Source: Hyphomicrobiales bacterium (lineage in GTDB: Bacteria > Pseudomonadota > Alphaproteobacteria > Rhizobiales > Xanthobacteraceae). Taken from it: 41,578 nt of DNA. The stretch lies in the NCBI GenBank assembly GCA_019243195.1, contig JAFAUQ010000163.1, positions 1 through 41,578 on the forward strand. The letters run 5' to 3'. Below, piece after piece: positions 14,939 to 36,916 of the stretch. Under the pieces are notes generated by a model. The model ran no database searches and had not been told where the DNA came from. It saw nothing but the letters and a program-made list of their open reading frames with translations. Every line of letters starts with the position of its first letter. Position 1 is the stretch's first letter. The position numbers and the translations under genes were made by a program.

Positions 14939-15838
14939 CACGGTCGGACGCCGATCGCGCGCGACGATCAGTGACTGCACCTCGCGAATCGCGGGATCGC
15001 CATGCTTCGCGTAGAACAGATCGAAGCTTTTCCCGAAGGTGTTGATGGAATCGCCGCGGGGATGATCCATGTGCGCGGAATAGATCTCCTCGGCTTGCAC
15101 GAAGCCGGCTCCCGACCGCCACAGTCGGTATCCGAGTTCGATAGCCTCCGCGCCCCACATCAGGCCAAAGGCCTCGTCATAGCCGCCGGCTTGCATGAAC
15201 AAGCGGCGGGCAATTCCCACCCCGGACCCCGAATAGCCGAGCCAGGGAAATCGCGGGGCGGGCTCGCGCAATACTTGCGCCACCAGTCGCTCGAAGCGAT
15301 TGAGATGACGGCATCTCCGGGCGATGGCGGGCCAATCGCTCAGAATCATTCGGCGGCTGATGCGCTCGTGCGCCAGTTTCGAGTCAACCAACCCGGTCGG
15401 ATGTCCCTGGTACGGCACACCGGTCTCGGGATCGCGGAATGCCGCGAGATAACGCAGCAAGTAGACCGGCGCGCGCACGACCGTGTCGGATCGGGCAATG
15501 CAAATCGCCGCGACCGTCCTGAGATAATCGGGCGAGAGAAGAACATCGTCATCCATGAAGACGAGAATTTCACCGCTTGCCCGCGCGGCGCCAAGGTTGC
15601 GCGCCGCGGCTTGACCGATCCGCGCGCTTTCGACGAGCTCGATTTCGAGCGGCAGGTTCCCCATGCCCCGGATCGCCTCTGCGGCGCCGCTGTCATGGCC
15701 ATCCGCCACCACCACGGTCTCGAAGCGTGCGAGGGTGCCGCTTGCCTGCCGCACCAGCGAGTGGAGGGCGAGAACAAGCCGCTCAGGTTTGCCGCGCGTG
15801 GGTATGATGACCGAGACAGCGGCCGCGGAAGGCGTCAC
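14924..15838 (-). CDS. Family 2 glycosyltransferase (GT-A fold)
   Basis: This is a 304-residue inverting glycosyltransferase. The N-terminus VSVIIPTRGKPERLVLALHS is the nucleotide-sugar binding start, ARNLGAARASGEILVFMDDD holds the metal-binding Asp motif, and YSGSGVGIARRLFMQAGGYD followed by WGAEAIELGYRL gives the acceptor-side ED-like motif. No membrane helix is seen, so it is cytosolic. The start is the GTG at 15838, whose GTGA overlaps the stop of the radical SAM gene; the longer frame upstream lies inside that gene. It is the last gene of the ACP-radical SAM-GT unit. It could attach an amino sugar made by the enzymes farther right. Confidence 0.88.
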   Translation of the reverse strand: MTPSAAAVSVIIPTRGKPERLVLALHSLVRQASGTLARFETVVVADGHDSGAAEAIRGMGNLPLEIELVESARIGQAAARNLGAARASGEILVFMDDDVLLSPDYLRTVAAICIARSDTVVRAPVYLLRYLAAFRDPETGVPYQGHPTGLVDSKLAHERISRRMILSDWPAIARRCRHLNRFERLVAQVLREPAPRFPWLGYSGSGVGIARRLFMQAGGYDEAFGLMWGAEAIELGYRLWRSGAGFVQAEEIYSAHMDHPRGDSINTFGKSFDLFYAKHGDPAIREVQSLIVARDRRPTVSVPG

Positions 15839-17640: not shown

Positions 17641-17642
17641 GA

Positions 17643-17963
17643 CTAGGCGGCGCCGATCCCGGGTGTTTGCAGGCTCGCGGCATTGTCCGCAAGCCACGCG
17701 GCCCAGGTATCGACGGAAGACAGGGCTGGGTTCAGCATTGCCTCATCGGGAATGTCGATATTCAAATCGGCCTCGACGTTCAAAATGAATTCGAGGTAAT
17801 CGACCGAAGTCAGGCCGAGCGCCGCAAAGGTACTGGAGGCGACGTCGCGATCGGCCGCGAGATCGTTCCGAGCGATCAGGATCTGCCGGAGAATGCCTGA
17901 GAGCCGATTGGTCAGAGCCTCATTTTTGTTCTCTGGTCGACTCAGCGAAAATGAAACAGTCAT
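17643..17963 (-). CDS. Acyl carrier protein
   Basis: This 106-residue stand-alone carrier protein has the phosphopantetheine attachment motif LGLTSVDYLEF (Ser53), followed by the usual acidic helix II/III segment EADLNIDIPDEAM. It has a ~15-residue N-terminal extension and a Gly/Ala tail. It is first in a three-gene unit with the B12 radical SAM enzyme and the glycosyltransferase. The AMP-forming ligase at 21471-22859 could load it and the BtrK-like decarboxylase could act on the loaded group. No ketosynthase or condensation domain occurs in the window, so it probably tethers a single acyl or aminoacyl unit. Confidence 0.9.
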   Translation of the reverse strand: MTVSFSLSRPENKNEALTNRLSGILRQILIARNDLAADRDVASSTFAALGLTSVDYLEFILNVEADLNIDIPDEAMLNPALSSVDTWAAWLADNAASLQTPGIGAA

Positions 17964-18532: not shown

Positions 18533-19363
18533 GTGGACGTGCAAAGGCGAGCGTGGGGGCGAAGCATGTTGCTGGAGTTCGCCGCCAAGCAGCAGGTCGT
18601 ACCGCTCGGACACATGTTCGGCGACGCGATCACGTCGACCGATTCCCGTCAGCTGCGCTCGCTCGTCGATGCCGCGCAAGCCATGGATTCGGGACAGGCC
18701 GACGGGCCGGCCTTGTGCCGCCTCCTGCGTCTCAGCGACGACCTCGATGCCGCGGGCCCGCGGCTGCGCTCGGCCGCCGGCGCGATGACGGCCGAACAGG
18801 TGGGAATGGCTTTGGCATTGGCGTACGTGCCGTTTCAGGTGGCCGACGCGTTCGCGGTCAACGTGATCAAGGGCGCAACACTCAAATCGCTGGCGGCAGC
18901 GATCGATCCGCGCTCGAGCATCCCGGTGCGCAGCCGGCTGTTTCTGGCCGACAATCTGCGGAAGGACAAAACTCTGCGCGGCGTCGTCGCTTGCGCGGCG
19001 TCGGTCGTAATTCTGCGCGAGAACGGGCCGGGTGCCGATGGCGCGGAACTCGTGGCACCCGACGCGCGCGAACGACTGCGCCGATTGGCCTTGTCGGTCC
19101 GCGGATATCACGCAAGTCCCGCCAAAATGGCGGCGGCGCTGCGTTACTGCCTGGCGCACGACTGGTGGAACGCCGACGGGCTCGCTCGCCACGTCGCGAT
19201 CGACATGGGCATCGAGGCAGGCGAAACCTTTGCCAATCCGCCGGCGGTTGCGGACCTCGTTTTGCTGTCTCTGATGCCGACCTGCGATACGATTGACGCG
19301 GCGGAACGACTGCTCGCTGCCTCGCCGCCGTCATCTATGCCGCGTGGCGCGCCGCTGCCTTAA
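18533..19363 (+). CDS. Unrecognised cluster protein (276 aa)
   Basis: This 276-residue protein is soluble and apparently almost all helical, rich in Ala, Leu and Arg, without a signal peptide or membrane segment. I recognise no family and no catalytic motif. Possible landmarks are FGDAITSTDSRQLRSLVDA, CRLLRLSDDLDAAGPRLRSA and HDWWNADGLARHVAIDMGIE. The GTG at 18533 follows AGAGGA by four bases, a good site; ATG codons lie further in. The stop region overlaps the convergent radical SAM gene by 29 bases. Position inside the cluster and normal codon use suggest a real pathway component, perhaps a scaffold or a diverged enzyme. Confidence 0.7.
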   Translation: MDVQRRAWGRSMLLEFAAKQQVVPLGHMFGDAITSTDSRQLRSLVDAAQAMDSGQADGPALCRLLRLSDDLDAAGPRLRSAAGAMTAEQVGMALALAYVPFQVADAFAVNVIKGATLKSLAAAIDPRSSIPVRSRLFLADNLRKDKTLRGVVACAASVVILRENGPGADGAELVAPDARERLRRLALSVRGYHASPAKMAAALRYCLAHDWWNADGLARHVAIDMGIEAGETFANPPAVADLVLLSLMPTCDTIDAAERLLAASPPSSMPRGAPLP

Positions 19364-20414
19364 GTTCGACAAGGCGGGCCTGAGCGGCCGGCGCGCGGAA
19401 CAAGGGCATCCGGGCGATCTCCGCGATGTCGATCGCGCCCTCGATGTAGAGATTGACGATATCGGCCTGGCTGAAGCAGTTCCGGCACACCGGCACCCGC
19501 GGACGTTCACGCGTGAGCAAATCGTACATCTTGTGCACGCCGACTTGTGCGGCAACGCCCTCGGGCCCGTCCTTCTTCATGTTCCCGATTTCCGCGGTCC
19601 AGCCGACCGGACAGGGCGTCACTGCGCCGGTATCGAAAAGTTGAATCGCCGCATTCGCCAAGTGGCAGCGCTGGCGCCGCCGGCCGTGCTCGACGTCGAG
19701 AAAATCAGCGAGAGCCGAATGATACGCCGGCGGGCAAAGCACGTCGGCAAAGACGCGGTGAATACCGCGCAGAAGATCGGCGAAGCCCGCGCGCACAGCC
19801 GGAGAAAACAGGGCATCCGCCCGAGGTCCCCTCACGGGTATGGGGACGACGATGATCGGGCGCTCTTTATTTTGCAGGAACTCGAGGAAAGACGGGAACG
19901 CCGGCGCATTGGCGTCGCTGATCACCGAGGTGATTTCAAGAACCTCGCATTCCTTAACCATCGCCGCGAAGGCAGCCGTCACGCGAGCGCCGATGTGATG
20001 GCTGCGCCACCGCATCGCGTTCATCTCGGGCGTATGTCCGTCGAGGGAGAGATTGAATCCCACGTTGCCGAGTTGCGCAAGGCGGCTGACGATTTCGGGC
20101 GTGACCTCGGTGCCATTGGTCAGCACCTGCACATGCGCGTAGCGGCTCGACAGCTCCGCGATCAGTTCTACCGCGTTGGCAAGCAGAAAAAGCTCGCCGC
20201 CGCTCACTTTGATGACGGGCGCGTCGACATACCGGCGCAGGCCGTCAACCATGTCGAGAACGTCGGCGAGCGCGATCGTGGCGCCGCGTCGCCGGTGTGA
20301 GGCGGAGGTGTTGCTGCCAAACGCGTTGGCATCCTCGACGCTGGTGCAATAGCTGCACTTCAGATTGCACCAGTTACCGGCGATGATCAGGTCATGATAG
20401 AGGTATCGTTTCAT
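19335..20414 (-). CDS. Radical SAM protein with C-terminal cysteine-rich (SPASM/twitch-like) region
   Basis: This 359-residue radical SAM enzyme has the cluster motif close to the N-terminus: C16-x3-C20-x2-C23 in NWCNLKCSYCTS. KVSGGELFLL and VQVLTNGTEVT followed by GFNLSLDGHTPEMNAMRW are barrel motifs of the peptide-modifying and anaerobic-maturase branch. The C-terminal half has Cys in RQRCHLAN, TPCPVGW and VPVCRNCFSQ, which could hold an auxiliary cluster. Enzymes with this plan often modify ribosomal peptides, which fits the peptide pair upstream in the same operon. It is the last gene of the nine-gene minus-strand run, 37 bases after PIG-L. Confidence 0.9.
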   Translation of the reverse strand: MKRYLYHDLIIAGNWCNLKCSYCTSVEDANAFGSNTSASHRRRGATIALADVLDMVDGLRRYVDAPVIKVSGGELFLLANAVELIAELSSRYAHVQVLTNGTEVTPEIVSRLAQLGNVGFNLSLDGHTPEMNAMRWRSHHIGARVTAAFAAMVKECEVLEITSVISDANAPAFPSFLEFLQNKERPIIVVPIPVRGPRADALFSPAVRAGFADLLRGIHRVFADVLCPPAYHSALADFLDVEHGRRRQRCHLANAAIQLFDTGAVTPCPVGWTAEIGNMKKDGPEGVAAQVGVHKMYDLLTRERPRVPVCRNCFSQADIVNLYIEGAIDIAEIARMPLFRAPAAQARLVELKAAARHAA

Positions 20415-20451: not shown

Positions 20452-21471
20452 TCATGAAGGCCCGTTCGGTCGGACGAAGCACCGCTCGGCCGCGTTATTT
20501 CGCCCGGCGATCCGCTTCGCGTGACCGATGCAAAGATCGATCTGAGTGGCACGCAGCCGTGTGCGAAAAACGGAGAGCGCCGTCCGCTTCTCGTCCAGCG
20601 TAGCCGTGATGTCGTTCAGCCGCGGCGTGTGACCATCGAGCGAGATGCCGCCGGCCGTTCCGGCGGCCGCGTACGGCAGGTCCTCGTAGAAGATGATGCG
20701 ATCGGCCGGAATGGCCAGCAACGCCGCGATGCGCGGGGCGGCGAGCGCGACAATCAGATGGTCGACATGGCCGCCGATCGCCGCAGGTGCGAACAGCCGT
20801 GCTATCGGCGTGCGACCCACCGGTTTGCGCGTGGCCGCAACAACCGCCCCGACCACTTGGTCGACGTCGCGCTGCACGTGCATCTGCGCGCGAAGCTCGG
20901 TTTCACGCCATCCCATTACGGCGCCGAAGGCGAGGCCGTGACGATCCTGCGCGCCGCGCAGCCCGAGCGAACAGCTCTCGTATCCGGTGATCCGCCCGGC
21001 GAGTCCATCCTCGGTGCGTGCGACGGCGTCGAGCTGATCGGCCGGAACCCGCAGCCCGGTCTGATACGATTGGAGGGAAAAAATATTCACCACCAGCGGC
21101 GCGGCACGGCGGCCGCGCTGCGACGCGATCAGTCCGCCGAGCGAGAGCGCAGCATCATCGACGTGCGGGGACAGGATGCAATCGCGCTCGCCGACGCAAG
21201 CGCCGGTCGAAGCCGGCGGAATACGGACCAGGTACCCGGCGGCAAGGAGTCGTTGGAGCGCCGACTGCTTGTCTGCGCTTAAGTCCAAGTCGATTTCGAT
21301 AAGCGAACGCTCCTCCTCGCAGGCGGCGGCAAGCTCGCGCTGTTCCGCAGAAAGCTCCACGACGCGGCCGCCGAGGGTCTGCAGGCCCTTTGGGTGCGGC
21401 GTGAAATGCGGAAGCAGGACGACGCTGTCGCACGCCTCAGGCATCCGTTCCCGCAGGGCCTGTGCGATCAT
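20452..21471 (-). CDS. PIG-L family deacetylase with N-terminal winged-helix (RRE-like) segment
   Basis: This 339-residue protein has a zinc-dependent N-deacetylase domain: SPHVDDAALSLGG (residues 101-113, the PHxDD metal motif) and the distal GGHVDHLIVALA. The family includes MshB and BtrD, which deacetylate N-acetylglucosamine conjugates. The first ~90 residues are not part of that domain. They read like a PqqD/RRE winged helix (LGGRVVELSAEQRELAAAC, ERSLIEI, SALQRLLAAGYLVRIPP), the fold many peptide-modifying enzymes use to bind leader peptides. The ATG at 21471 shares its A with the ligase stop (TGATG), fixing the start. Deacetylation of an amino-sugar conjugate bound to the peptide is a possible role. 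Confidence 0.87.
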   Translation of the reverse strand: MIAQALRERMPEACDSVVLLPHFTPHPKGLQTLGGRVVELSAEQRELAAACEEERSLIEIDLDLSADKQSALQRLLAAGYLVRIPPASTGACVGERDCILSPHVDDAALSLGGLIASQRGRRAAPLVVNIFSLQSYQTGLRVPADQLDAVARTEDGLAGRITGYESCSLGLRGAQDRHGLAFGAVMGWRETELRAQMHVQRDVDQVVGAVVAATRKPVGRTPIARLFAPAAIGGHVDHLIVALAAPRIAALLAIPADRIIFYEDLPYAAAGTAGGISLDGHTPRLNDITATLDEKRTALSVFRTRLRATQIDLCIGHAKRIAGRNNAAERCFVRPNGPS

Positions 21472-22859
21472 CAGAGCCGCTCGTGCCGGTCGCCGGCGCC
21501 ATGGCTGCTCCGACCGAGCTGGACGCGGGCCAGTTGTTCCAGAACCTTGCGATCCGGCTTGCCGGCCGGACCACGCGGAAAGTTGCCGACCGTCAGCACC
21601 GTCACCGGCATGCCGTTCGTCGCCGGATCGAGCTTGCCGGCGATCTCCCCTGGGAGGACATGGTCGGTTTCGCACACGAGCACGAGGTCGGATATCTCGG
21701 CACGATCCGTTCGCGGTATCGCAAACGCCATGGCGTCGCTAACCCGCTCGATCCGGCGCGCACGGTCGACGAGGCGACCTCCGTCCACGAGATGGCCATT
21801 GATCTTGAGCTGATCGTCGATCCGTCCCAGCAGCGCCACCGTCCCATCCTCGCCAAGTCGGGCGATGTCGCCGGTCCGCCAAATTCCCTGCTTCAGCGAC
21901 GGTGCCTGCGGCTGACCTTCAATGCCCAAAATCTCGTGGCCGAGTTCCAGGACCAGTTCCTCGGGCCCGGCGCCGACACCCGGCGACCTGATGCCAACGC
22001 CGTGGAACGGCGGACCAAGGCACCCTTGCGGCAGGGAATGCGGCGCGCCGAACGTCGCCCCGGTCTCCGAGCAGCCGTAGTTGCGGCCGAGCCCGACACC
22101 GAAAGTGCGGCGGAACGCGTGATCGAGGGACTCCGGCACCGGCCCGGCTCCGGCGATCACAGTTTCCGGCGGTCGTTTGGGGATTTGTAAACTCGGCTCG
22201 GCGGCCTCGATCGCCAAGCGCGCGATGGTCGGCGTCAAGATAACGACGTCGGCGCCGCCCGAATGCAGCAGGCGCGCTAAGCGCCGAGGATGCACCACGT
22301 CGAAAAGCTCCGCACAGCCGCCACCCGCAAGCGCGCCCAACAGTGCCCCGAACGCAAACGAGTGTTCGATCGGCGCCACGAGAACGGTGCGATGTCCTGC
22401 TGCGAGAGAGTAGCGCGCGACGTAACGCTCGGCTTCGGCCAACAGGCTTTCGAACGAGCGCTTCGCCAGCTTCGGGTGCCCGGTCGTGCCCGAGGAGGCA
22501 TGAATGACCGCGGCGGGTGCCGTGTCGATCCGCGGTCCGTCGCAAAGTTTGACCCGGTCCGACCAGCGCCATAGCGCCGTTTCGCCGCGCCACTCCGCCG
22601 CGATCTCATCGTTTGCACCGAGGACCGGAACCCCGCCGGACTTCCAGATCGCCAGAACGGCGAGGAAGAGCTCCGCTCCGCGCGGACCCGCGAGGATGAC
22701 CCGGTCTCCCGATCGCCAAGGCCACGCGGCACTCCCGTCGCTGCCATGGGACGCCTCTTCCCACAGCCGGCTCACGGCAACATCGCGCCGGTCCGCGAGT
22801 ATGAGGCGACCTCGGCCGAGCGCGGCAATCACGTCATCCAGTCGGCGCTCGACAGACAT
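21471..22859 (-). CDS. AMP-forming acyl/aminoacyl ligase (ANL superfamily)
   Basis: This 462-residue adenylating enzyme has the phosphate-binding loop HASSGTTGHPKLAKRS (about residue 120), then NYGCSETGATFG, WRTGDIA, GRIDDQLKINGHLVDGG and the C-terminal catalytic Lys in PRGPAGKPDRK. It is shorter than typical 500-550-residue members and has an abbreviated N-terminal subdomain. The expected reaction is activation of a carboxylic acid with ATP and transfer to a thiol, most likely the stand-alone ACP at 17643-17963. It lies eight bases after the aminotransferase gene and overlaps PIG-L by one base. Confidence 0.9.
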   Translation of the reverse strand: MSVERRLDDVIAALGRGRLILADRRDVAVSRLWEEASHGSDGSAAWPWRSGDRVILAGPRGAELFLAVLAIWKSGGVPVLGANDEIAAEWRGETALWRWSDRVKLCDGPRIDTAPAAVIHASSGTTGHPKLAKRSFESLLAEAERYVARYSLAAGHRTVLVAPIEHSFAFGALLGALAGGGCAELFDVVHPRRLARLLHSGGADVVILTPTIARLAIEAAEPSLQIPKRPPETVIAGAGPVPESLDHAFRRTFGVGLGRNYGCSETGATFGAPHSLPQGCLGPPFHGVGIRSPGVGAGPEELVLELGHEILGIEGQPQAPSLKQGIWRTGDIARLGEDGTVALLGRIDDQLKINGHLVDGGRLVDRARRIERVSDAMAFAIPRTDRAEISDLVLVCETDHVLPGEIAGKLDPATNGMPVTVLTVGNFPRGPAGKPDRKVLEQLARVQLGRSSHGAGDRHERL

Positions 22860-22867: not shown

Positions 22868-24082
22868 CTATGCGATCGCTCGCGCTACAGTCGGCGCCCG
22901 AGCCATGGGCTGACGGAGATCACCGACCGCCGCCGCGATGTCGGCCAGCAACTCTTCATCCCCGAGCAGCAGTGAGTGATGGAACCAGATGACCTCGCGC
23001 GCCGCCTGCCCGGCAACCGGGGTGTTGATGCGATCGTAGGCGGGCGCCGATCGGTTCGAGCGCAGGGGTTTGTGCAAAATGTCGGACGCAAACATGCCGC
23101 TCCGATGGATCTCCGGAAAGCAGCGGTAAGCCGGAATTCCCAGTTTCCGGAGCTCCGCGGAAATTTCTCCGGCATCGCGCCCGCCGAATTCCGAAGGATC
23201 GAACCAGGCCATCACCATGTAACGGCCGTGGATATCGACATAGGGCTCGCGCGAGAGCGGCTCGAGCCCTGCGTCGCGCAAACGTTCCTCAAAAAACGGG
23301 GCCGACTTTTCGCGCTGCGCACATTGCTCGGGCAAACGCGCCAGTTGGCATCGCAAAATAGCCGACTGGAATTCCGTCAATCTCATATTCGTGGCCGGCA
23401 TGAGATGCACGTAATCGGTATCGCCTTTGGGGCGTCCACATGAATGAAGCGCGAATGTGCGCTCGGCGATGGCAGCATTGTTTGTAGCGACCGCGCCTCC
23501 TTCCCCACAGGTCAGCAGCTTGCCGGCCTGAAAGCTGAAGATGGAAGCTTCGCCAAGCGCCCCGAGCGCGGCTCCAAACGCCCTGGCGCCGTGACAATGA
23601 GCCGCGTCTTCGAGAATGACCAACCGGTGGCGGCGGGCGATCTCCAGGAGCGCCGGCATGTTCACCGCATGCCCGGCCATGTGGACCGGAATAATGCACT
23701 TCGTGCGCGACGTGATCGCCGCCTCGACGGCCTGCGGGTCGATATTGAGTGTGGTGCGCTCCACATCCACCGGCACCGGCCACGCGCCGATGCGCAGCAC
23801 CGCCGAAGCCGTTGAGATGAAGGTGCATGCCGGTACGATGACCTCGTCGCCCGGCTCCACTCCGAGCGCGTCAAGCGCGAGTTCGAGAGCGAGCGTTCCG
23901 TTGGCGACGACGCGGACATGGCGGACGCCTAGTTGGGCCGCGAATGCCGCCTCGAATTCATCTCCCGCAACGCCGTTGCCGCGCCACCATCGCCGCGAAT
24001 GCAGCACGTCGCGCAAGCCCTCTTCGTCGGTCGTGTCGAAACGAGGCCATGGCGGAATCCGCTCGGCGAACGTGCTTTGCAT
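22868..24082 (-). CDS. DegT/DnrJ/EryC1 aminotransferase, AHBA-synthase-like
   Basis: This 404-residue PLP aminotransferase of the sugar-aminotransferase family has its PLP lysine at Lys188 in FSFQAGKLLTCGEGG. Several stretches closely recall AHBA synthase (RifK) as I remember it: RRWWRGNG, VIVPACTFISTASA, IIPVHMAGHAV, EDAAHCHGA, HSCGRPKGDTDY, NMRLTEFQSAILRCQLARL and VIWFHHSLLL. RifK and its relative NtdA aminate a 3-keto sugar or form an amino-aromatic. The start at 24082 follows AAAGGA by about seven bases. Neighbours are a ROK kinase and a HAD phosphatase, the same enzyme types as RifN and RifM. An amino-sugar (kanosamine-like) intermediate is therefore likely; AHBA itself less so because RifG/H/J are absent. 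Confidence 0.9.
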   Translation of the reverse strand: MQSTFAERIPPWPRFDTTDEEGLRDVLHSRRWWRGNGVAGDEFEAAFAAQLGVRHVRVVANGTLALELALDALGVEPGDEVIVPACTFISTASAVLRIGAWPVPVDVERTTLNIDPQAVEAAITSRTKCIIPVHMAGHAVNMPALLEIARRHRLVILEDAAHCHGARAFGAALGALGEASIFSFQAGKLLTCGEGGAVATNNAAIAERTFALHSCGRPKGDTDYVHLMPATNMRLTEFQSAILRCQLARLPEQCAQREKSAPFFEERLRDAGLEPLSREPYVDIHGRYMVMAWFDPSEFGGRDAGEISAELRKLGIPAYRCFPEIHRSGMFASDILHKPLRSNRSAPAYDRINTPVAGQAAREVIWFHHSLLLGDEELLADIAAAVGDLRQPMARAPTVARAIA

Positions 24083-24114
24083 GATTGAAGTCCTTTCTCT
24101 GGATACGATGCGGT

Positions 24115-24981
24115 TCACGGCCGCTGCCCCGGTTTGGTTCCGTTGCGCATGACCAAGCCGAGCGCAGCGCCTACCAGTCCGGCTTCCTCGCCGAACCGAT
24201 GACGTTCGATGGCCACCGGGATTTGCCTCTGCTCCAAGCCCCCTTGAATGAGCTCGAACAGCGGCGAGATGCCGAGGCCTCCGCCAATCACGATCCGGTC
24301 AAGATCGAATAAACAATCAAGAATTGCAAGCGCTTCCGCGATTGAAGCGACGGCCCTGGCGAGGGCGGCGGTGTCGCGTTGGGAATCGACGGTCACGTCC
24401 CCCGGTCCTCTCGACGAACCCAGGTGCACGCCCAGAGCAGCGCCGGAGGCCGCTGCCTGCAAGCACCCGGTCCGACCGCACGTGCACGGCAGGCCGGTCG
24501 CCGACGGCACCGGCATGTGACCCACGTCCATCGCCGCTCCCGAGCGCCCGGTCAGCGGAATGCCGGCTATCACCGCGCCCCCGCCGATCCCCGTCCCGAT
24601 GGTGATGCAGAGCGTTGTCTCGTCCTGATGCTTGGGCTCGAACCGATGGGCCGAGATCGCCGCCGCGGTGGCATCGTCGAACACAGCGACCTCGGCCGCG
24701 TTCTTCATTTCTGTGCTCAGCAGGTTTTGCCCCTGATAAGCGGGGCGATTGGGCCAGCGGCGCACGATGCCGTTGCCGTGCAATTCCGGCGCCGCCGCGA
24801 GCGCCACGCGCCGGGGCCGGCCGACTTCGCGCCAAGCGGAATCGAGTGCTTGCACCGCGTCGGGAGCAGCATCGGGTGTGGGCACCACTGATTTCGTTTT
24901 CAACTCCAGCGTTGTCGGGCACACGGCCGCGTATCTCAGCCACGTCGCACCGAGATCGATTGCAAATACCGGCTCGCTCAC
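24115..24981 (-). CDS. ROK-family sugar kinase
   Basis: This 288-residue kinase of the ROK family has an N-terminal phosphate loop FAIDLGATWLR, catalytic region VFDDATAAAISAHRFE, second loop ITIGTGIGGGAVIAG, and the zinc/sugar motif VGHMPV...CTCGRTGCLQAAASG. The last residue of the CxCGxxGCLE motif is Gln instead of Glu. The GTG at 24981 gives the family-like start MSEPVFAIDLG; the longer frame overlaps the HAD gene and is not conserved in type. Substrates are hexoses or amino hexoses; RifN, a kanosamine 6-kinase, belongs to the same family. The next gene downstream is the aminotransferase, 32 bases away. Confidence 0.88.
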   Translation of the reverse strand: MSEPVFAIDLGATWLRYAAVCPTTLELKTKSVVPTPDAAPDAVQALDSAWREVGRPRRVALAAAPELHGNGIVRRWPNRPAYQGQNLLSTEMKNAAEVAVFDDATAAAISAHRFEPKHQDETTLCITIGTGIGGGAVIAGIPLTGRSGAAMDVGHMPVPSATGLPCTCGRTGCLQAAASGAALGVHLGSSRGPGDVTVDSQRDTAALARAVASIAEALAILDCLFDLDRIVIGGGLGISPLFELIQGGLEQRQIPVAIERHRFGEEAGLVGAALGLVMRNGTKPGQRP

Positions 24982-25012: not shown

Positions 25013-25666
25013 TCACCGCGTGGTGCTCCCCACAGGCTTGCGCGTTTCTTGCAGTTCGCGCATGAGCGCGACCACATCCTCCGGCCGCGCAATCGAAACC
25101 ATCTCCGGCCGGGGGGCCGGCAAAGGAAATCCGCCCCAGGTCGCCAGTATCGGCAGCCGTTGCGCGTTCTCCGCCGCCTGAAGGTCAACGTCGGTATCGC
25201 CGACAAAGGCCAGGGAGGGCCCTGAACCAAGCAAGTTTTCGCACAGCCAAAGGCCATCGGGCTTCGGCTTGCCTGGTGCGTCGGTCGCCGTGACGACAGC
25301 GTCGACGAGACCCGCAAGCCGGGTCGTTTCGAGAATCCCGAGTGCACGCGGGCGGTCTTTGCCGGTGACGACGCCGATGCGCAGGCTCATCGCTCTGAGC
25401 CGGTGCAGCATCGCCGGGATCCCCTCGAAGGGCCGCACGTGCGGATCGTGTGCGCGCGCGATGGCGCGAAAAACTTGCGGGAAATCGGACGGAAAGCCGA
25501 ACTCCGCGACGATGGTTTCGAGCGGCATGCCCATTCTGGCGCGAAAGTCGGCGAGATGGGCTCTGCCATCCAACCCGAATTGGCTCGCGGCGCCGAGGAA
25601 GGCCGGAGTTACTGCGTCCCAGCTGTCCACCAACACACCGTCAAGGTCGAGGAGGACTGCTCTCAT
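25013..25666 (-). CDS. HAD-superfamily phosphatase (phosphoglycolate phosphatase-like)
   Basis: This 217-residue hydrolase has motif I VLLDLDGVLVDS (nucleophile Asp7, acid/base Asp9), a helical cap, motif II GVVTGKDR, motif III Lys in PGKPKPDGL and motif IV FVGDTDVDLQAA. It probably removes phosphate from a sugar phosphate. RifM and NtdB-type phosphatases of amino-sugar pathways are functional parallels. Its ATG overlaps the stop of the asparagine-synthetase-like gene by four bases (ATGA), so it is made together with it. Confidence 0.9.
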   Translation of the reverse strand: MRAVLLDLDGVLVDSWDAVTPAFLGAASQFGLDGRAHLADFRARMGMPLETIVAEFGFPSDFPQVFRAIARAHDPHVRPFEGIPAMLHRLRAMSLRIGVVTGKDRPRALGILETTRLAGLVDAVVTATDAPGKPKPDGLWLCENLLGSGPSLAFVGDTDVDLQAAENAQRLPILATWGGFPLPAPRPEMVSIARPEDVVALMRELQETRKPVGSTTR

Positions 25667-27393
25667 GCGGCCCCCGCGTGCGTATCGGCCGTCAGCGTTA
25701 CAAGAATATCGCTCACCTCCGGAAGAGCGCCGCGGCGACCGGACAAGTAAGTTGCGCGAAAGATTTCGAACAGGACGTAGTCGACTTTGCTCGCGAAGCA
25801 GCGCGCGCTTTCCGACTTGCTCATCAGCTCATCTGATATTGCGCGGCCGCACATCTCCTCGAAGCGCACGGAATGAAGCCGCGCCGCGTGCGGCATCATC
25901 ATCTTTGACCGCATCGCCATGTCGACGATGCGCTCGCCATAACGGCGCACCGCGGACCGGCGCAGGACTCGCTTGGTTATGTTGAGGGCGCAATCCACGA
26001 CTTCGTGCGCCGGCAGACTGCGCACAACGGCTTGAACGTCTCTGTCGAGATAGGGCACCCGCATCTCGACGCCGGACGCCATCGAAATGTGATCGACCGG
26101 ATCGAGTTGCGCGCGCTCGAGCAATTCGGCGAGGGAAACGTCCAGGGTCTCGCGAATACCGCGGGCCGGCACGGCGGCAGCCGCTACCAGCCGGTCCCGG
26201 ATCTCGAAGGCGCGGTCGCTCGGTGACAGGCCCGCCTCCTTGGCGCGCCTGAATCCGTCGGCGAGCGAAGCGATCGTTGCAGCGGGATCGAAATAGCCGC
26301 CGAGGGTTTCATCCGCTCCCTCGCCGTTCAGACAAACCTTGGCGGTGCGCCCGATGTGGCGGCAGAGCAAATGCAGCAACGGACCGGCGTGGAGATCGGG
26401 GGCTTCGACCGCCGCGATGGTGGCGGGAATCGCTGCCAGGTAATCTGCGAAACCGACCGTGAGAAGCGAATGATTCGAGCCGATCGCGTCGGCCACCCTT
26501 TGCGCGGCGACAGCGTCCGGGTGCAATGGATCATCGGCAACAGTGAACGTCCGAAGCGGCCTGTCGGCAACTTCGGCAGCCATGAAGGCAAGCATCGATG
26601 AGTCGATGCCGCCGGACAACACGGCGACAACTTCGACGTCAGACTGCATGTGGGTACGCACTGCCGCGAGGAGCGCGCGCGTAAAAGCCTCCTCCGGATT
26701 CTCCACGGTCGTTTGGGCCCCCGCCGGCACCTGGTCCGCATAACGGCTGTGTCTGATTCGGATGCCTCCTGCCCACGTGACGGTCGCGCTGCAGCCCGGC
26801 TGCAAAGTCGAGACCCCGGCAAAAAAAGTGCGGGGTCCCGTCAGATAGCCGAGCGCGATGAAATCGGCGAAAGCGCGCTCGTCGAGCGACGTCTGCACGG
26901 CGGGATGCCGCAGCAGGGCTTTGGCCTCTGACGCGAACAAAAACGGCCCGCTCGGCCCGAGACAGGTGAAGCGCAGCGGTTTGATACCGAGAGGATCGCG
27001 TACCAGGGAAAGCCGGTCGCGCTCGAGCGCCGCGAAGGCAAACATGCCGGAGAGGCGAGCCGGCAGCTCGCTGCCCCACTCCACCCAACCGCGCAAGACC
27101 ACTTCAGTGTCGCAAGTCGTGCGGAATGCATGGCCGCGCGCCTGAAGCTCGTGGCGTAACTCGCGGCAATTGTAGATCTCGCCGTTGAGGACGACGGCCG
27201 TGCCGGTCTGCTCATCCACCATCGGCTGCAGCCCGTTGGCCGGATCCATGATGGCAAGGCGCGCCGACCCGATTTCGCAGAAGTCGCGCCGCAGAATGTT
27301 CGACGCATCGGGGCCGCGATGGCGAATCGCATCAAGCAGCGGGCGCACATCGGGCGGCCCGCATAGCGTCACCACTCCGGCTAGCGCGCACAC
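25663..27393 (-). CDS. AsnB-type glutamine-hydrolysing amidotransferase
   Basis: This 576-residue protein starts at the GTG at 27393, which places Cys at position 2 (MCALAGVV), the nucleophile of class II glutaminases. IRHRGPDAS, SARLAIMDP and LNGEIYNCRELR complete the glutaminase domain. The synthetase domain has the ATP loop VLSGGIDSSMLA (about residue 250) and CLNGEGADETLGGY. Both halves look complete. In clusters such proteins convert a carboxylate to an amide or, as in lasso-peptide cyclases and beta-lactam synthetases, form a ring amide. The intact Cys2 favours ammonia transfer. GAGG lies about 12 bases upstream, and the desaturase stop is 13 bases away. Confidence 0.92.
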   Translation of the reverse strand: MCALAGVVTLCGPPDVRPLLDAIRHRGPDASNILRRDFCEIGSARLAIMDPANGLQPMVDEQTGTAVVLNGEIYNCRELRHELQARGHAFRTTCDTEVVLRGWVEWGSELPARLSGMFAFAALERDRLSLVRDPLGIKPLRFTCLGPSGPFLFASEAKALLRHPAVQTSLDERAFADFIALGYLTGPRTFFAGVSTLQPGCSATVTWAGGIRIRHSRYADQVPAGAQTTVENPEEAFTRALLAAVRTHMQSDVEVVAVLSGGIDSSMLAFMAAEVADRPLRTFTVADDPLHPDAVAAQRVADAIGSNHSLLTVGFADYLAAIPATIAAVEAPDLHAGPLLHLLCRHIGRTAKVCLNGEGADETLGGYFDPAATIASLADGFRRAKEAGLSPSDRAFEIRDRLVAAAAVPARGIRETLDVSLAELLERAQLDPVDHISMASGVEMRVPYLDRDVQAVVRSLPAHEVVDCALNITKRVLRRSAVRRYGERIVDMAMRSKMMMPHAARLHSVRFEEMCGRAISDELMSKSESARCFASKVDYVLFEIFRATYLSGRRGALPEVSDILVTLTADTHAGAA

Positions 27394-27406: not shown

Positions 27407-28306
27407 TCATGTTCTGCCTGTGGAGCTGCCTTGCGGCGAAGCCTGCACGCAAGCCGCCATGGCGCGAAACACATCCCGCATGGACTGACGATACCCAGGA
27501 GCCTGCTCGCCGGCGCGGCGGCAACGCTCGGCATGGAACGCCGGCAACAGATGAAAAGGAAGGCTCGGGCGCAGGTGATGCTCGACGTGATAATTGTCGT
27601 AATGGATCAGGTAGCGCCAGAGCCCCGGCGCGCGGTACGTTCGCGTATTGACATCAAGGCGGCGCGACGCCGGCCGGCCGAGATGCTCGGCCGAGGTCAT
27701 GAGAAAGTGGCATGGCGGCGCAACAACAAGTGCCGGCACGATCCAGCCCCATAGCGCCAAGCCGGGATTGAACCACAGCGAAAGCATCAGCAAAGCGGCC
27801 ATGCCCGCCGCGGTCACAAGGAGCTCCGTCCGCGCAAGCTCTCGCGAGGCGTTCCCGAGCGGCCCCCGATACCGGCCCACCTGCAGCGACCAGATCATCG
27901 CAACAAAACTTGGCAGGCGGCCGAAATCGAATACATGTCCCAGAATGTCGCGGCCGCTGCGAAAGTCGTGGCACCTGCGGTCGAAAACGTCCTGTTCGGT
28001 TCCGTTGTAACGGTGGTGAAGCAGATGCCGTACCCGCGTGTCCGTGTAGGTGGCCAGCATCGGGAATCCCAAGATCGACCCGAGCAACCGATTGCCCGCG
28101 TCCGTCTTGAACAAGATCCCGTGTAGGGCTTCGTGCTGAAGTTCGAGCCCGTGGGCGAACGTGATGCCCAACAGCACGCTTCCGACAATCGTCACCGGCC
28201 AGCTCGGCGCTGATGCGAGAACCCAGAGCAAAATGGCAATTGCTGCCAGATAGAGGCAGACTTTCGCCCTGGAAAGCGCAATCCCGGCGCTGCGCGAGCG
28301 TGTCAT
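27407..28306 (-). CDS. Membrane fatty-acid-desaturase-type di-iron enzyme
   Basis: This is a 299-residue integral membrane protein with the three histidine boxes of the desaturase/hydroxylase family: HGLELQHEALH (His58 and His62), HLLHHRYNG (His94, His97, His98) and YHVEHHLRP near residue 240. Hydrophobic spans lie at about 17-50 and 165-205. Members desaturate or hydroxylate acyl chains or other hydrophobic substrates. No other lipid genes are nearby, so its target may be the pathway product or a carrier-bound acyl group. Its ATG overlaps the peptidase stop (ATGA), tying it to the cluster operon. Confidence 0.9.
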   Translation of the reverse strand: MTRSRSAGIALSRAKVCLYLAAIAILLWVLASAPSWPVTIVGSVLLGITFAHGLELQHEALHGILFKTDAGNRLLGSILGFPMLATYTDTRVRHLLHHRYNGTEQDVFDRRCHDFRSGRDILGHVFDFGRLPSFVAMIWSLQVGRYRGPLGNASRELARTELLVTAAGMAALLMLSLWFNPGLALWGWIVPALVVAPPCHFLMTSAEHLGRPASRRLDVNTRTYRAPGLWRYLIHYDNYHVEHHLRPSLPFHLLPAFHAERCRRAGEQAPGYRQSMRDVFRAMAACVQASPQGSSTGRT

Positions 28307-30246
28307 CGGCAGCCTCGCGGCATCGAGCTGCTCATGAGGTGTGCCGGGGCGCGCGGCACGACGGCCGCCTCAATCGCTGCGCTTGGCCGGTCGTCCGAGA
28401 CATCCGCGGCGCCCGGCCATCCCTGCCCGAATGCGCCGCGGCGCGCCCCCGCCTCGGCTAAGGTGCGCGTGAAGGTGCCAAGCTGTCCCGCTGCCGCGAA
28501 GGCGACCGTCAGCGTGCAGGGGACGACGGGCAGCCAGTGCGAGGGATCGACGTTGCGCCGCGGTCGCCCATCGGCGCCTTTGGGCCAAGCCCAGCTGGCG
28601 GTCTGCAGCGGCCAACGATTGTTCACGACAATGGCGCCAAACCATGTCCCGGCCGGGAAGCGCCCGGCCAGGCGCAAGCGATTGCGCGTAATTTTGACCG
28701 AGAAACCCAGCTCGGCGGAAACATTCTCGCAGACTTCACAGCGCGGACAGATCGACAGCCGGAACTGTGAAGTCAGCGGGCTCGGCAGGCTTGCGACCAA
28801 GCCCGTTGCCTGCGAGCCACAGTGATTGCAAACCCGGCTATCAGGGCTCGCCGCCACTGACGAGGCAGTGCGCACCCAGACGGTATGCATTGCCTCTTTT
28901 TCCAGCTGGGCGACGAAATCGCCCCAGAGGTCAGCGAGGGTTCGGTCGAGGCCGCCTTTATCTCCTCGCGTAAGCCGGATGAGCCCAGCCGCAGCCGAAC
29001 TGAGCGCCGCATCATCGGCACGCATGGTGCGCGCGGCGGCGCGGCGCGGAAGCTCCCCGGTCACGACGACCGGCGCGACATCGGTCGCGCGATGCTCGGG
29101 TTTCGCTGGCGAGACTGCGCGGGCGGTGCGCGGCGCGATGCACATGTCGGGATCGCCGAACAGAACCAGGCTGTGCGCTTTTCCGCGTGCCGCCCGTGAA
29201 GCATTGTGGGCGGCGACGACCGTGCCGATCGACTCGCCGCGCATCAACGCCGAGGCGAGATCGTCGGTCAGGTCGGAAGGCGTTATCACGATCTGATGGG
29301 TGGTGATAAAGGCGCCGATGGCGGGATTGACGGCGAGCCGCACGCCAACGCCGAAGTCGCGATCCACGAAGGCGTTGCGCGCCGGCCAGCCGATGCAGGA
29401 GTTCCAAACGAGCGCACGTGCGGACACCGATGCGGGTTGCACCCTGCGCAACAGGAATTCGTCGCTGCCGATGGCGGTGTTGGTCCGATGGCAGCGGGCG
29501 GTCATGTGGCAAATCGGCCTGCGCGCCCGGCCGCTGGCGATGAATTCCTCATCCACCGGACAGAGCACCGTTCCGCCGCCGAGATCGCCGTCGATCCCAT
29601 CGCCATGCCCGGTCAGGACGAGCAAGCTGCTGCCCTGGGACAGGGCTGCGCGGATCGCTGCCGGCTCGGCATGATGCCCGAGCATCCAGCATCTGTTTCC
29701 TTCGAGGCTGCCGAAGGCGTGACTGGGCAGCAGCTCGATGCGGCGCGGAAGGGCGGCTGGGCGAGCGTGATAATAGATCGCGCTGGCAATGACCTTGCGC
29801 CGCAGCTCACCCAGGTTGCGGCCCATGATAAGTCCGGGCGCGCTCGGCAGATCGGGCGCCGAAAGTCGCTGCATAAGGGCGGAGTCGATCGCATTGGCGA
29901 GCGCAACGCAGACGGAGATTGGTCCGAGCCGCGAAGGCGACGAGAATTCCGACGCTCGTTCGACCCGGTGAACAGGCCGGCCGGTCAGATGCGCATAGAG
30001 CCGCGCAGCCGGAAACGCCGCGGCGCCGATCGCAAGCACCGGATCGCCTTGCCCGTTGGAGAATGCGCAAGGAAGCGCGTCAACCGGCGCAATTTTGCTG
30101 CCCGCGTTGCGACAGGCGGCCTCGGCGGCCGCAACATCGGTGCGCCGGAGGGGAAGTACCGGCGCGCCATCGGGAGTTCGAAGCAGATCCGAGCCTGGTC
30201 CGATAAACGCCGGGATTATCGTCTCACGACTGATCTGGCTGAACAT
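28303..30246 (-). CDS. Clan CD (caspase/gingipain-like) cysteine peptidase with zinc ribbon
   Basis: This 647-residue protein has a central domain with the catalytic His in LVLTGHGDGIDG (His214) and Cys in LVWNSCIGWP (Cys284), then IGAFITTHQIV and VLFGDPDMCI (363-370). This is the arrangement of peptidase family C25/CHAT enzymes. It is followed by a probable zinc ribbon C473-x2-C476...C500-x2-C503 and a C-terminal beta-rich region. No signal peptide is seen, so it is cytosolic. The ATG at 30246 is preceded by GGGGAGAG. It is the first enzyme gene after the two DELHW peptides, which are likely substrates: clan CD peptidases commonly cut after Arg, Lys or Asp, all present before the conserved peptide tail. 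An alternative is a non-proteolytic scaffold. Confidence 0.8.
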   Translation of the reverse strand: MFSQISRETIIPAFIGPGSDLLRTPDGAPVLPLRRTDVAAAEAACRNAGSKIAPVDALPCAFSNGQGDPVLAIGAAAFPAARLYAHLTGRPVHRVERASEFSSPSRLGPISVCVALANAIDSALMQRLSAPDLPSAPGLIMGRNLGELRRKVIASAIYYHARPAALPRRIELLPSHAFGSLEGNRCWMLGHHAEPAAIRAALSQGSSLLVLTGHGDGIDGDLGGGTVLCPVDEEFIASGRARRPICHMTARCHRTNTAIGSDEFLLRRVQPASVSARALVWNSCIGWPARNAFVDRDFGVGVRLAVNPAIGAFITTHQIVITPSDLTDDLASALMRGESIGTVVAAHNASRAARGKAHSLVLFGDPDMCIAPRTARAVSPAKPEHRATDVAPVVVTGELPRRAAARTMRADDAALSSAAAGLIRLTRGDKGGLDRTLADLWGDFVAQLEKEAMHTVWVRTASSVAASPDSRVCNHCGSQATGLVASLPSPLTSQFRLSICPRCEVCENVSAELGFSVKITRNRLRLAGRFPAGTWFGAIVVNNRWPLQTASWAWPKGADGRPRRNVDPSHWLPVVPCTLTVAFAAAGQLGTFTRTLAEAGARRGAFGQGWPGAADVSDDRPSAAIEAAVVPRAPAHLMSSSMPRGCR

Positions 30247-30456: not shown

Positions 30457-30639
30457 CTACCAGTGCAGCTCGTCGTCGACGTCCAGTACGACGCCCTTGC
30501 GGGCGATATCCACCCGAATGCGGGCAAGTTCCGCTTCGGCCATATGGTATCTCTCGAGCGCGCCGTGGAACCGCTCGAGTGCGGACTGATTCTCGGCCTG
30601 CCTGGATTCGCTTTCGCCCGCTTCGGGAGTCCCTACCAT
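30457..30639 (-). CDS. Candidate precursor/carrier peptide 1 (60 aa, ends DELHW)
   Basis: This 60-residue peptide begins MVGTPEAGESESRQAEN and ends GVVLDVDDELHW. The first ~48 residues are charged and helix-forming (LERFHGALERYHMAEAELAR); the tail after ARKG is hydrophobic-acidic and ends in Trp. It aligns without gaps with the peptide at 30951-31133, with 35 of 60 identical residues, including DELHW and GVVL. The ATG at 30639 has a very strong ribosome site (AGGAGAGGAG); a longer in-frame extension is unlikely. No known domain. It lies 210 bases upstream of the peptidase gene on the same strand. A leader-plus-core layout with the core near the C-terminus is inferred. Confidence 0.8.
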   Translation of the reverse strand: MVGTPEAGESESRQAENQSALERFHGALERYHMAEAELARIRVDIARKGVVLDVDDELHW

Positions 30640-30681
30640 ATTCCGTCTCCTCTCCTGTGTGATTGAACTCAAGCGCAAACA

Positions 30682-30710
30682 ATCCTAACCCACTTTGTCG
30701 CAACTGGGAA
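30682..30710 (-). promoter_or_regulatory. Predicted promoter of peptide gene 1
   Basis: On the minus strand TTCCCA (30710-30705), a 17-base spacer starting GTTGCG, and TAGGAT (30687-30682) lie 43 bases before the ATG. The promoter of peptide gene 2 has the same spacing, the same GTTGCG start of spacer and the same upstream CATTTTC, which supports both. Confidence 0.5.
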
Positions 30711-30809
30711 TAGTGAAAATGGAGATGACTAGAACTAGAGAGTGGACTCGACGTGTGCGTGTTGTCGCACGCGCAAAGAGTGAACGTTTTTGATGTCGCT
30801 TTTGCGACA
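30695..30809. promoter_or_regulatory. Cluster of TGTCGC motifs between the peptide genes
   Basis: The 8-mer TTGTCGCA occurs at 30695-30702 (inside the predicted promoter spacer) and at 30762-30769, and a palindrome TGTCGC-TTTT-GCGACA lies at 30794-30809. The repeated half-site suggests a regulator-binding region controlling peptide gene 1 and the operon below it. The surrounding 311 bases between the two peptide genes contain no other gene and are more AT-rich than the rest. Confidence 0.45.
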
Positions 30810-30950
30810 ATTGCCGTCAGCAAATAATTGCGGCCGGCGCTATCCACAATGATTGCGCGAAACGACCGGCGACAGCCGGAATTGGACACCGGCGGCAGTC
30901 GAGACTGCCGCGGGGCAATTTGAACCCTGGGGCGAGAGACGGGCTGCCAA

Positions 30951-31133
30951 CTACCAGTGCAACTCGTCGCAAAGCTCCAGGACGACGCCTCTGCGGGCGA
31001 GTTCCGCGCGAGCGCGCGCGAGCTCCTCTCCGGCCGAGTTGAATCGCTCAACCGCGCCTTGGAAGCGCTCCAGCGCGGCTGCATTCTCCGCCTGTTTGGC
31101 TTCACGCGCGCGTTCTTCCGGAGACCCTGCCAT
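30951..31133 (-). CDS. Candidate precursor/carrier peptide 2 (60 aa, ends DELHW)
   Basis: This 60-residue peptide begins MAGSPEERAREAKQAEN and ends GVVLELCDELHW. It is the same length as peptide 1, with matching helical region (LERFQGAVERFNSAGEELAR) and a double-basic ARRG before the tail. Differences in the tail are D/E, V/L and D/C, so this copy has a Cys five residues before the final Trp. The nucleotides coding the last residues and stop (GACGAG-TTGCACTGGTAG versus GACGAG-CTGCACTGGTAG) are nearly fixed. GGGGG lies about eight bases before the ATG. It is the first gene of the series on the minus strand, with its own promoter. Confidence 0.8.
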   Translation of the reverse strand: MAGSPEERAREAKQAENAAALERFQGAVERFNSAGEELARARAELARRGVVLELCDELHW

Positions 31134-31402: not shown

Positions 31403-31482
31403 TCGCTTGGGGGGCGGACCAGTCGGAGTTAGAGCGGGGCGCTCGGGTGGTCGTGCTCGACGACAGCGCATGACTAGCGCGA

Positions 31483-31511
31483 TTGGCGTGAGCGCCACAT
31501 GTCCCTATCTT
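31483..31511 (+). promoter_or_regulatory. Promoter/operator of the second antitoxin copy, diverged
   Basis: In an ungapped alignment with the left copy, TTGGCG (31483-31488) and TATCTT (31506-31511) replace TTGACA and TATGTT at the same 17-base spacing. The left operator palindrome is gone; a different one, TGGCG-TGAG-CGCCA (31484-31497), sits at nearly the same place. Confidence 0.5.
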
Positions 31512-31517
31512 CGGCAC

Positions 31518-31757: not shown

Positions 31758-31762
31758 CGGTT
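31744..31762 (+). pseudogene. Stub of deleted PIN toxin gene
   Basis: The first five codons of the toxin (MIVVD) match the intact copy at 11462, overlapping the antitoxin stop as there. After that the sequence is unrelated (GSSTLLYRE...) and no PIN motif follows, so the toxin has been removed by deletion or replacement. Confidence 0.65.
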
Positions 31763-31880
31763 CCTCGACCCTTCTGTACCGCGAACGCGAAAAGGGGTGG
31801 AAGCATGCGCGTGGCGGCTGCTTTGTCGCGAAGCCAATTCTCGGCTATGATTCCGGTGCCCCAATTTGGATGGACAGCCG

Positions 31881-35435: not shown

Positions 35436-35443
35436 ACGGGGCG

Positions 35444-36910: not shown

Positions 36911-36916
36911 TCGTCG

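What the first reader, a model, noticed from the sequence alone, without database searches (positions are those of the whole stretch)
30457..31133. Pair of paralogous 60-aa peptides with invariant DELHW C-terminus at the head of an enzyme-rich operon
Two ORFs of exactly 60 codons align without gaps with 35/60 identities. Both have a charged helical N-terminal part, a basic residue plus Gly (ARKG/ARRG), GVVL, and the fixed end DELHW-stop. Each has a good ribosome site. They precede a peptidase, two radical SAM proteins (one in the same run), an AsnB-type enzyme and other tailoring genes. This is the pattern of ribosomal precursor or carrier peptides, but the core sequence matches no RiPP class I know. 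The C-terminal Trp or the Asp/Glu residues could be the modified site, or the peptide could carry a small molecule at its C-terminus.
Basis: partly seen in the sequence, partly recalled or inferred. Interest (0 to 1): 0.93.

Follow-up and report, generated by a model that had tools for sequence, protein, structure and literature searches.

The report
Ribosomal DELHW peptides in biosynthetic cluster
Two small ribosomally made peptides with an identical five-residue tail belong to a rare, conserved cluster of biosynthetic genes, and they may be the handle on which an unusual small molecule is made, though that step is not yet shown.

Summary
Two 60-codon ORFs (minus strand, 30457-30639 and 30951-31133) align without gaps, 35 of 60 identical, both ending DELHW-stop. 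They are real genes: two other genomes of the family each carry one homologue of the same length and end, third codon positions differ most in all six pairs, and pN/pS is 0.36-0.70. Three of 391 family genomes carry the peptide, and the same three alone carry a protein private to the neighbouring cluster. The cluster has 17 kinds of gene, 16 of them in the window: ACP, AMP ligase, BtrK-like decarboxylase, AsnB, two radical SAM enzymes (one B12-binding), GT2, a PIG-L deacetylase, DegT, HAD, ROK, GntB/GntC-like enzymes, a private protein and one with peptidase-like motifs. The deacetylase has an N-terminal part that weakly resembles PqqD/RRE peptide-binding domains. The peptide matches no Pfam or NCBIfam model beyond chance level. 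Best reading: a ribosomal substrate or scaffold peptide whose free C-terminus is the working end, in a pathway I found in no library searched. The main rival is a small unmodified partner protein. Modification, product and the peptidase assignment are not shown. New variant of peptide-dependent biosynthesis, good interest.

The parts
30951..31133 (-). 60-aa peptide 2, ends ELCDELHW-stop
   Evidence: ORF; 35 of 60 identical to peptide 1; 26 and 27 of 60 identical to the peptides of G050 and G147
30457..30639 (-). 60-aa peptide 1, ends DVDDELHW-stop
   Evidence: ORF with SD; 31 and 33 of 60 identical to the peptides of G050 and G147
28303..30246 (-). 647-aa protein with GHGDG and [ST]CIG motifs (clan-CD-peptidase-like by motif only, recalled) and a C-terminal four-Cys zinc-ribbon-like part
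   Evidence: Motifs in 3 of 3; no family at threshold; C25 at 10.8 bits against a cut-off of 23 for one fragment
27407..28306 (-). FA_desaturase-fold (diiron type) enzyme, GntB-related
   Evidence: PF00487 4e-37; GntB model 49.8 bits, below its cut-off 380
25663..27393 (-). AsnB-type glutamine-hydrolysing amidotransferase, GTG start followed by Cys, SGGIDS motif
   Evidence: TIGR01536 331.6 bits, over cut-off 267.1; motifs. ORF extends to 27534; start placed by homology, GTG-TGC read
25013..25666 (-). HAD phosphatase, best named model AHBA-synthesis-associated (RifM-like)
   Evidence: TIGR01454 84.3 bits, below its cut-off 246.65
24115..24981 (-). ROK-family sugar kinase
   Evidence: PF00480 1.4e-30; start placed by homology
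22868..24118 (-). DegT sugar/cyclitol aminotransferase, closest solved relative AHBA synthase
   Evidence: PF01041; 1b9i 6.7e-81, then 2-deoxy-scyllo-inosose aminotransferase 2.2e-65
21471..22859 (-). AMP-forming ligase
   Evidence: PF00501 1.9e-25
20452..21471 (-). Possible RRE/PqqD-like N-terminal domain (about residues 15-85) fused to a PIG-L deacetylase
   Evidence: PIG-L over cut-off for the G147 member (28.9 against 28.2) and below it for the window member (20.4); PqqD by profile comparison; strands then helices in a model of mean pLDDT 53.7, 55-87 over residues 21-80
19335..20414 (-). Radical SAM enzyme (CxxxCxxC)
   Evidence: PF04055 6.9e-16; motif; only PDB match at E up to 0.1 is SkfB, 4.4e-5
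18533..19363 (+). Cluster-private protein of 276 aa, no known family
   Evidence: No match (G147 member); present in exactly the three peptide genomes of 391
17643..17963 (-). Acyl carrier protein
   Evidence: PF00550 26.9 bits, over cut-off 20.8
15835..17697 (-). B12-binding radical SAM enzyme
   Evidence: PF02310 and PF04055; OxsB 7e-24; best NCBIfam models BchE and RiPP radical SAM C-methyltransferase, both below cut-off
14924..15901 (-). GT2 glycosyltransferase (in one ORF with the B12 radical SAM enzyme in G050)
   Evidence: PF00535 4.4e-17; single ORF in G050
13487..14938 (+). PLP fold-I enzyme, GntC-like
   Evidence: PF00155; GntC model 92.7 bits, below its cut-off 415
12225..13541 (+). 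PLP decarboxylase, closest solved relative BtrK (L-glutamyl-ACP decarboxylase)
   Evidence: 4.2e-63 to BtrK; TIGR03099 283.7 bits, below its cut-off 478.45

Best explanation
The two peptides are ribosomally made substrates of the pathway encoded beside them: a precursor or reusable scaffold whose free C-terminus ([KR]G-x-x-L-[DE]-x-x-DELHW) is the working end. Proposed mechanism (inferred): the RRE-like domain fused to the PIG-L deacetylase, and perhaps other enzymes, dock on the peptide. Units prepared by the cluster (an amino sugar or cyclitol from DegT/HAD/ROK, with an oxidoreductase in two of three genomes; an ACP-bound, decarboxylated amino acid from ligase/ACP/BtrK-like enzyme; a hydroxylated or cyclised amino acid from the GntB/GntC-like pair) are put on or built at the C-terminal segment by AsnB, GT2 and the radical SAM enzymes. 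The protein with peptidase-like motifs may then release the product. Shown: real, selected genes; fixed C-terminus; strict linkage in the genomes found; enzyme families. Inferred: that the peptide is a substrate, every reaction, their order, and the release.
For: Same end in 4 of 4 peptides from three genomes, stop codon in register. pN/pS 0.36-0.70 over whole peptides in six pairs, uncorrected. Peptide in 3 of 391 family genomes; cluster-private protein in the same three and no other of 391. Sixteen kinds of cluster gene shared by the window and the others, 17 by the other two. Two diverged copies in the window, as precursors often have (recalled). PqqD/RRE-like part: hhalign probability 33% (pairwise E 4.4e-4) against at most 0.61% for 23 windows of three other cluster proteins and at most 0.84% for 30 column shuffles; first of 145 windows of the cluster's proteins, next best 7.5%; strands followed by helices in the low-confidence model. 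Weak likeness of the radical SAM enzymes to RiPP maturases: SkfB 4.4e-5, RiPP C-methyltransferase model 117.7 bits against a cut-off of 281.85. AsnB motifs intact. Precedent: TglA, a recycled 50-residue scaffold with an F[N/D]LD box near its end, RRE-bearing enzymes and a releasing protease (PMC9016710, passages); ammosamide, with a scaffold peptide, proteases and a candidate AsnB-like amidase (PMC12715798, passages).
Against: No LanB/PEARL-type family came up when at least one member of each of the 17 gene kinds was scanned against Pfam. The peptidase is motif-only and failed the CHAT profile test (0.34%, below the best of 20 shuffles, 2.0%). The RRE call rests on three sequences and a 24-column confident core, its middle helix has no counterpart, its global alignment is only 6.5%, and in the 50 rows shown of the Foldseek search no RRE stands out and no match reaches E 0.001. 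Peptide 1 is about as conserved as the enzymes, with no variable core. The neighbours make sense as a small-molecule pathway without any peptide.
Confidence: 0.45

Rival explanations
1. The peptide is a small unmodified partner protein (MbtH-like in role, recalled): an adaptor or activator of one of the enzymes, for example the desaturase-type hydroxylase that follows it, with the DELHW tail as its docking motif.
For: In G050 and G147 the next cluster gene after the peptide on the same strand is the desaturase. Identity of peptide 1 to the relatives (52% and 55%) and between the relatives (72%) is like that of the enzymes (53-72% for 14 proteins, window against G050). No variable core.
Against: Two diverged copies in the window, the second only 43% and 45% identical to the relatives; in the window the motif protein, not the desaturase, follows; a possible peptide-binding domain in the cluster.
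Confidence: 0.3
2. Classical RiPP: the last 12 residues after [KR]G are the core, modified (hydroxylation, radical SAM, glycosylation) and cut off as the final peptide product.
For: Conserved [KR]G in 4 of 4, a plausible cut site for a clan-CD-type peptidase (inference); RREs fused to glycosyltransferases of PF00535, the family of the GT2 here, are mentioned in PMC12710340 (passages); weak RiPP-maturase likeness of both radical SAM enzymes.
Against: The last five residues are invariant in 4 of 4; the ACP, ligase, decarboxylase and sugar genes are unneeded for a simple RiPP; no class that I know; peptidase unproven.
Confidence: 0.15
3. Chance or pseudogene ORFs without function.
For: Short ORFs; the region holds many spurious ORFs.
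Against: Full-length homologues in two other genomes with an excess of synonymous change.
Confidence: 0.02

Closest known systems
TglA / pearlin scaffold peptides (3-thiaglutamate, ammosamide)
   Same: Small ribosomal peptide whose C-terminus matters, an RRE-like part in the cluster, AsnB-like enzyme (ammosamide), a segment near the C-terminus ([VL]-[VD]-L-[DE]) loosely like F[N/D]LD
   Different: No PEARL found among the cluster proteins; other enzymes differ; the end DELHW is encoded, not appended
LysW-type amino-group carrier proteins
   Same: Small acidic protein with a conserved acidic/aromatic C-terminus (EDWGE in LysW, recalled)
   Different: No sequence match; at most one Cys in the peptide, so no zinc finger; no ATP-grasp ligase among the families found
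Butirosin side-chain module (BtrI/J/K) and exosortase-A-associated ligase/decarboxylase/amidotransferase set
   Same: Ligase, ACP, PLP decarboxylase and AsnB-like amidotransferase in one cluster
   Different: Exosortase-associated models all below their cut-offs; no exosortase among the cluster's families
Kanosamine/AHBA module (RifK, RifL, RifM, RifN)
   Same: DegT closest to AHBA synthase, AHBA-associated HAD, ROK kinase, Gfo/Idh/MocA oxidoreductase in two of three genomes
   Different: No aminoDAHP or aminoDHQ enzyme among the cluster's families; oxidoreductase missing in the window; HAD below cut-off
GntB/GntC of guanitoxin biosynthesis
   Same: Desaturase-fold hydroxylase and PLP cyclodehydratase models are the best named matches of the two enzymes
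   Different: Far below the cut-offs (49.8 of 380; 92.7 of 415), so substrates probably differ

Membership tests
RiPP / ribosomal scaffold pathway | Short conserved ORF beside modification enzymes | tested here: met
   3 of 3 genomes that hold the peptide
RiPP / ribosomal scaffold pathway | Peptide-recognition (RRE) domain in the cluster | tested here: inconclusive
   PqqD-like N-terminus of the PIG-L protein: 33% against at most 0.84% for 30 shuffles and 7.5% for the next of 145 windows; global alignment 6.5%
RiPP / ribosomal scaffold pathway | Post-translational change of the peptide | not testable with these tools
   Needs mass spectrometry
Pearlin (PEARL-dependent scaffold) | PEARL / small LanB-like ligase in the cluster | tested here: not met
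   No such Pfam family among the cluster proteins scanned; the rest of the genome was not searched for it
CHAT / clan CD peptidase | Match to a peptidase family profile | tested here: not met
   No Pfam at threshold; CHAT profile 0.34%, below the best shuffle; C25 10.8 bits against 23 for one of three homologous fragments
CHAT / clan CD peptidase | His-Gly and Cys motifs | tested here: met
   GHGDG and [ST]CIG in 3 of 3; that these define the clan is recalled
LysW amino-group carrier | Family profile match | tested here: not met
   At E up to 10 only four stray matches, each to one of 4 members (CysS_C 0.17, ATP-synt_DE 9.5, geobacillin-26 family 0.18, MmpB 1.3)
Kanosamine/AHBA module | Four enzymes RifK/L/M/N-like | tested here: inconclusive
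   DegT, HAD, ROK in 3 of 3, MocA in 2 of 3; DegT nearest AHBA synthase; HAD 84.3 of 246.65 bits
Butirosin-type ACP side chain | Ligase, ACP and BtrK-like decarboxylase together | tested here: met
   by similarity only, substrate unknown

The most novel reading that the evidence does not exclude
A ribosomal carrier peptide that works without an aminoacyl-tRNA ligase (PEARL): an amino-sugar/ACP-derived small molecule is assembled at its encoded DELHW C-terminus and then released, a new way of coupling the ribosome to aminoglycoside-like biosynthesis.
Probability: 0.22. Interest if true: 0.87.

Novelty: new variant of a known kind. Interest (0 to 1): 0.62.

Why it matters
Peptide-scaffolded small-molecule pathways are few and, as far as I recall, recognised mainly through their PEARL enzymes. 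A cluster that couples a fixed-tail ribosomal peptide to aminoglycoside-type (DegT, BtrK-like, PIG-L, GT2), guanitoxin-type and radical SAM enzymes, without a recognised PEARL, would widen that principle and give a concrete set of 16-17 kinds of gene to express. The peptide matches none of the family models that I scanned beyond chance level, so searches built on those models would miss it.

Tried and rejected
Peptide outside the family: genome contigs, two pattern scans, none; class draw, 1 of 385, own only; viral contigs none; plasmids none; genera of the two relatives, 1 of 16 and 1 of 2, the known ones only. Cluster-private protein: phylum draw, 1 of 398, own only; plasmids none. In one search, 72 of 101 genomes gave some match at E up to 1; I kept the three rows with E below 1e-8 and dropped the rest (E 0.005 or worse) as chance without examining each. 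Desaturase and PIG-L proteins in plasmids: 2 weak matches and none. B12 radical SAM protein in plasmids: 157 records, 4 neighbourhoods fetched and compared with all cluster proteins; besides the B12 protein only one weak ligase match in one of them (L067, 27.5%), so no related cluster in those four. CHAT homology of the 647-aa protein: not supported. C25 profile: no member found in 61 genomes to build one, and nothing rang in the controls. Structure of the 647-aa protein: mean pLDDT 42.6, unusable. Foldseek of the PIG-L protein: 976 matches, none at E 0.001, 50 shown, mainly deacetylases and unrelated folds. The missing oxidoreductase: best match elsewhere in the genome is partial, 35% over about 130 of 358 residues. 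Amphipathic helix of the peptide: hydrophobic moment reached by 945, 169, 482 and 207 of 5000 shuffles, not decisive. Papers: DELHW 0 papers; nine further searches gave no paper that I recognised from the listing as describing this cluster; the listings are short and the library is partial.

Full report
Observation. On the minus strand two ORFs of 60 codons (30457-30639; 30951-31133) align without gaps with 35 of 60 identical residues and end in DELHW-stop. The match between them is far beyond chance (E about 1e-17 within the genome). Both have upstream purine-rich sites. The pattern search of the window's six frames for ELHW-like ends found no third.

Are they genes? A draw of 101 genomes gave one convincing homologue, in G050 (E 3e-9). 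Using that peptide, a draw of 391 family genomes gave a second, in G147, so 3 of 391 carry it, own included. All four peptides have 60 residues with the stop in register; 20 columns are invariant, DELHW among them. Peptide 1 is identical to the relatives at 31 and 33 of 60 positions, peptide 2 at 26 and 27, and the relatives to each other at 43. Third codon positions hold the most differences in each of the six pairs (between 28 of 72 and 24 of 48 differences). pN/pS is 0.36-0.70 over the whole peptides and 0.31-0.54 over residues 48-60 (uncorrected for multiple hits, few sites). I take this as coding genes under purifying selection.

Linkage. The stretches around the peptides of G050 and G147 carry the same run of genes as the window. 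The order there is: peptide, desaturase-fold enzyme, AsnB, HAD, Gfo/Idh/MocA oxidoreductase, ROK, DegT, AMP ligase, PIG-L protein, radical SAM, a private protein on the other strand, ACP, B12 radical SAM, GT2 (one ORF with the former in G050), GntC-like PLP enzyme on the other strand, the motif protein, BtrK-like decarboxylase. In the window the motif protein lies between the peptides and the desaturase, and no oxidoreductase lies between HAD and ROK; elsewhere in this 66%-complete genome only a partial 35% match was found. Window and G050 are 53-72% identical for 14 proteins and 31% for the motif protein; against G147 BLAST aligned only the last part of the motif protein (27%). The private protein, without a known family, occurs in the same three genomes and in no other of the 391 drawn, so peptide and cluster travel together 3 of 3. 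Outside the family nothing was found: peptide 1 of 385 class genomes, own only; private protein 1 of 398 phylum genomes, own only; no peptide in genome contigs, viral contigs or plasmids and no private protein in plasmids. These are draws and pattern scans, so rare distant clusters may be missed.

What the enzymes suggest. The DegT enzyme is closest among solved structures to AHBA synthase and then to 2-deoxy-scyllo-inosose aminotransferase. The HAD protein's best named model is AHBA-associated, well below its cut-off. With a ROK kinase and, in two genomes, a Gfo/Idh/MocA oxidoreductase (for the G147 member), this resembles the RifL/K/M/N route to kanosamine 6-phosphate as described in PMC8788734 (passages read). 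The decarboxylase's closest solved relative is BtrK, L-glutamyl-ACP decarboxylase, and a ligase and an ACP are present. The decarboxylase, the amidotransferase and, faintly, the ligase also resemble exosortase-A-associated models below their cut-offs. The desaturase-fold enzyme and the PLP enzyme have GntB and GntC as best named models, far below the cut-offs; GntC is a cyclodehydratase acting on hydroxyarginine made by GntB (PMC10367076, passages). The B12 radical SAM enzyme is nearest to OxsB among solved structures; its best NCBIfam models are BchE and the RiPP radical SAM C-methyltransferase, both below cut-off. The other radical SAM enzyme has one PDB match at E up to 0.1, SkfB, a RiPP maturase (4.4e-5), while its best NCBIfam models are a mixed set below cut-off. 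AsnB has a Cys after its start codon and the SGGIDS motif and passes the asparagine-synthase model. These are similarities, not substrate assignments.

Is the peptide a substrate? The one new lead is the N-terminal part of the PIG-L protein. By profile-profile comparison with 21 PqqD-family domains of relatives it scored 33% (pairwise E 4.4e-4); 23 control windows from three other cluster proteins reached 0.61% at most and 30 column shuffles 0.84% at most. Among 145 windows of the cluster's proteins it ranked first, the next at 7.5%. The model (mean pLDDT 53.7, 55-87 over residues 21-80) shows four strands and then two helices there. Against this, the confident alignment covers 24 columns, the global score is 6.5%, one RRE helix has no counterpart, other winged-helix families were not tried as controls, and the Foldseek rows shown do not name an RRE. 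The words deacetylase, LmbE and PIG-L do not occur in the main text of PMC12710340, a survey of RREs (term search). I call it a possible, not a proven, RRE.

The motif protein. It has GHGDG and [ST]CIG conserved 3 of 3 and an LFGD-x-D segment, which recalls clan CD peptidases to me. But no Pfam, NCBIfam or PDB profile confirms it at threshold, the CHAT comparison fails, and the model is unusable.

Reading. A fixed free C-terminus, two copies, strict linkage and a possible peptide-binding domain favour a peptide that is worked on; the similar conservation of peptide and enzymes and the invariant end favour a scaffold over a variable-core RiPP. TglA is the closest working model: a recycled 50-residue scaffold, with an F[N/D]LD box near the end, enzymes that have RREs, and a releasing protease (PMC9016710, start of the abstract in the listing and passages). 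The [VL]-[VD]-L-[DE] segment at residues 50-53 here is loosely similar, a lead only. The absence of a recognised PEARL among the cluster's proteins means that it is not shown to be a pearlin. The rival, a small partner protein for one enzyme, is not excluded and is the reason for a confidence of 0.45.

Verdict. Observation confirmed; interpretation partly supported; peptide family and cluster not found in the libraries searched beyond three genomes of one family; product and mechanism open.

Noticed in passing
window 32688-38377 (+): Type I restriction-modification genes: HsdR-like (EcoEI_R_C), HsdS-like (Methylase_S), HsdM in order.
   Followed up: partly
window 31407-32461 (+): Short ribbon-helix-helix-like protein (FitA/ParD models, below their cut-offs), then a DUF433-DUF5615 (PIN-like) pair, toxin-antitoxin-like, next to the peptide genes on the other strand.
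   Followed up: partly
L011 10911-13766: In G050 the B12 radical SAM enzyme and the GT2 form one 951-aa ORF, while they are separate ORFs in the window and in G147: a fusion that hints at coupled reactions.
   Followed up: no
window 24981-25013: The Gfo/Idh/MocA oxidoreductase present between HAD and ROK in G050 and G147 is missing at this place in the window, so this genome may lack the sugar dehydrogenation step or supply it from elsewhere.
   Followed up: partly
L003 974-1330 (+): An S-adenosylmethionine decarboxylase gene lies just upstream of the G050 peptide.
   Followed up: no
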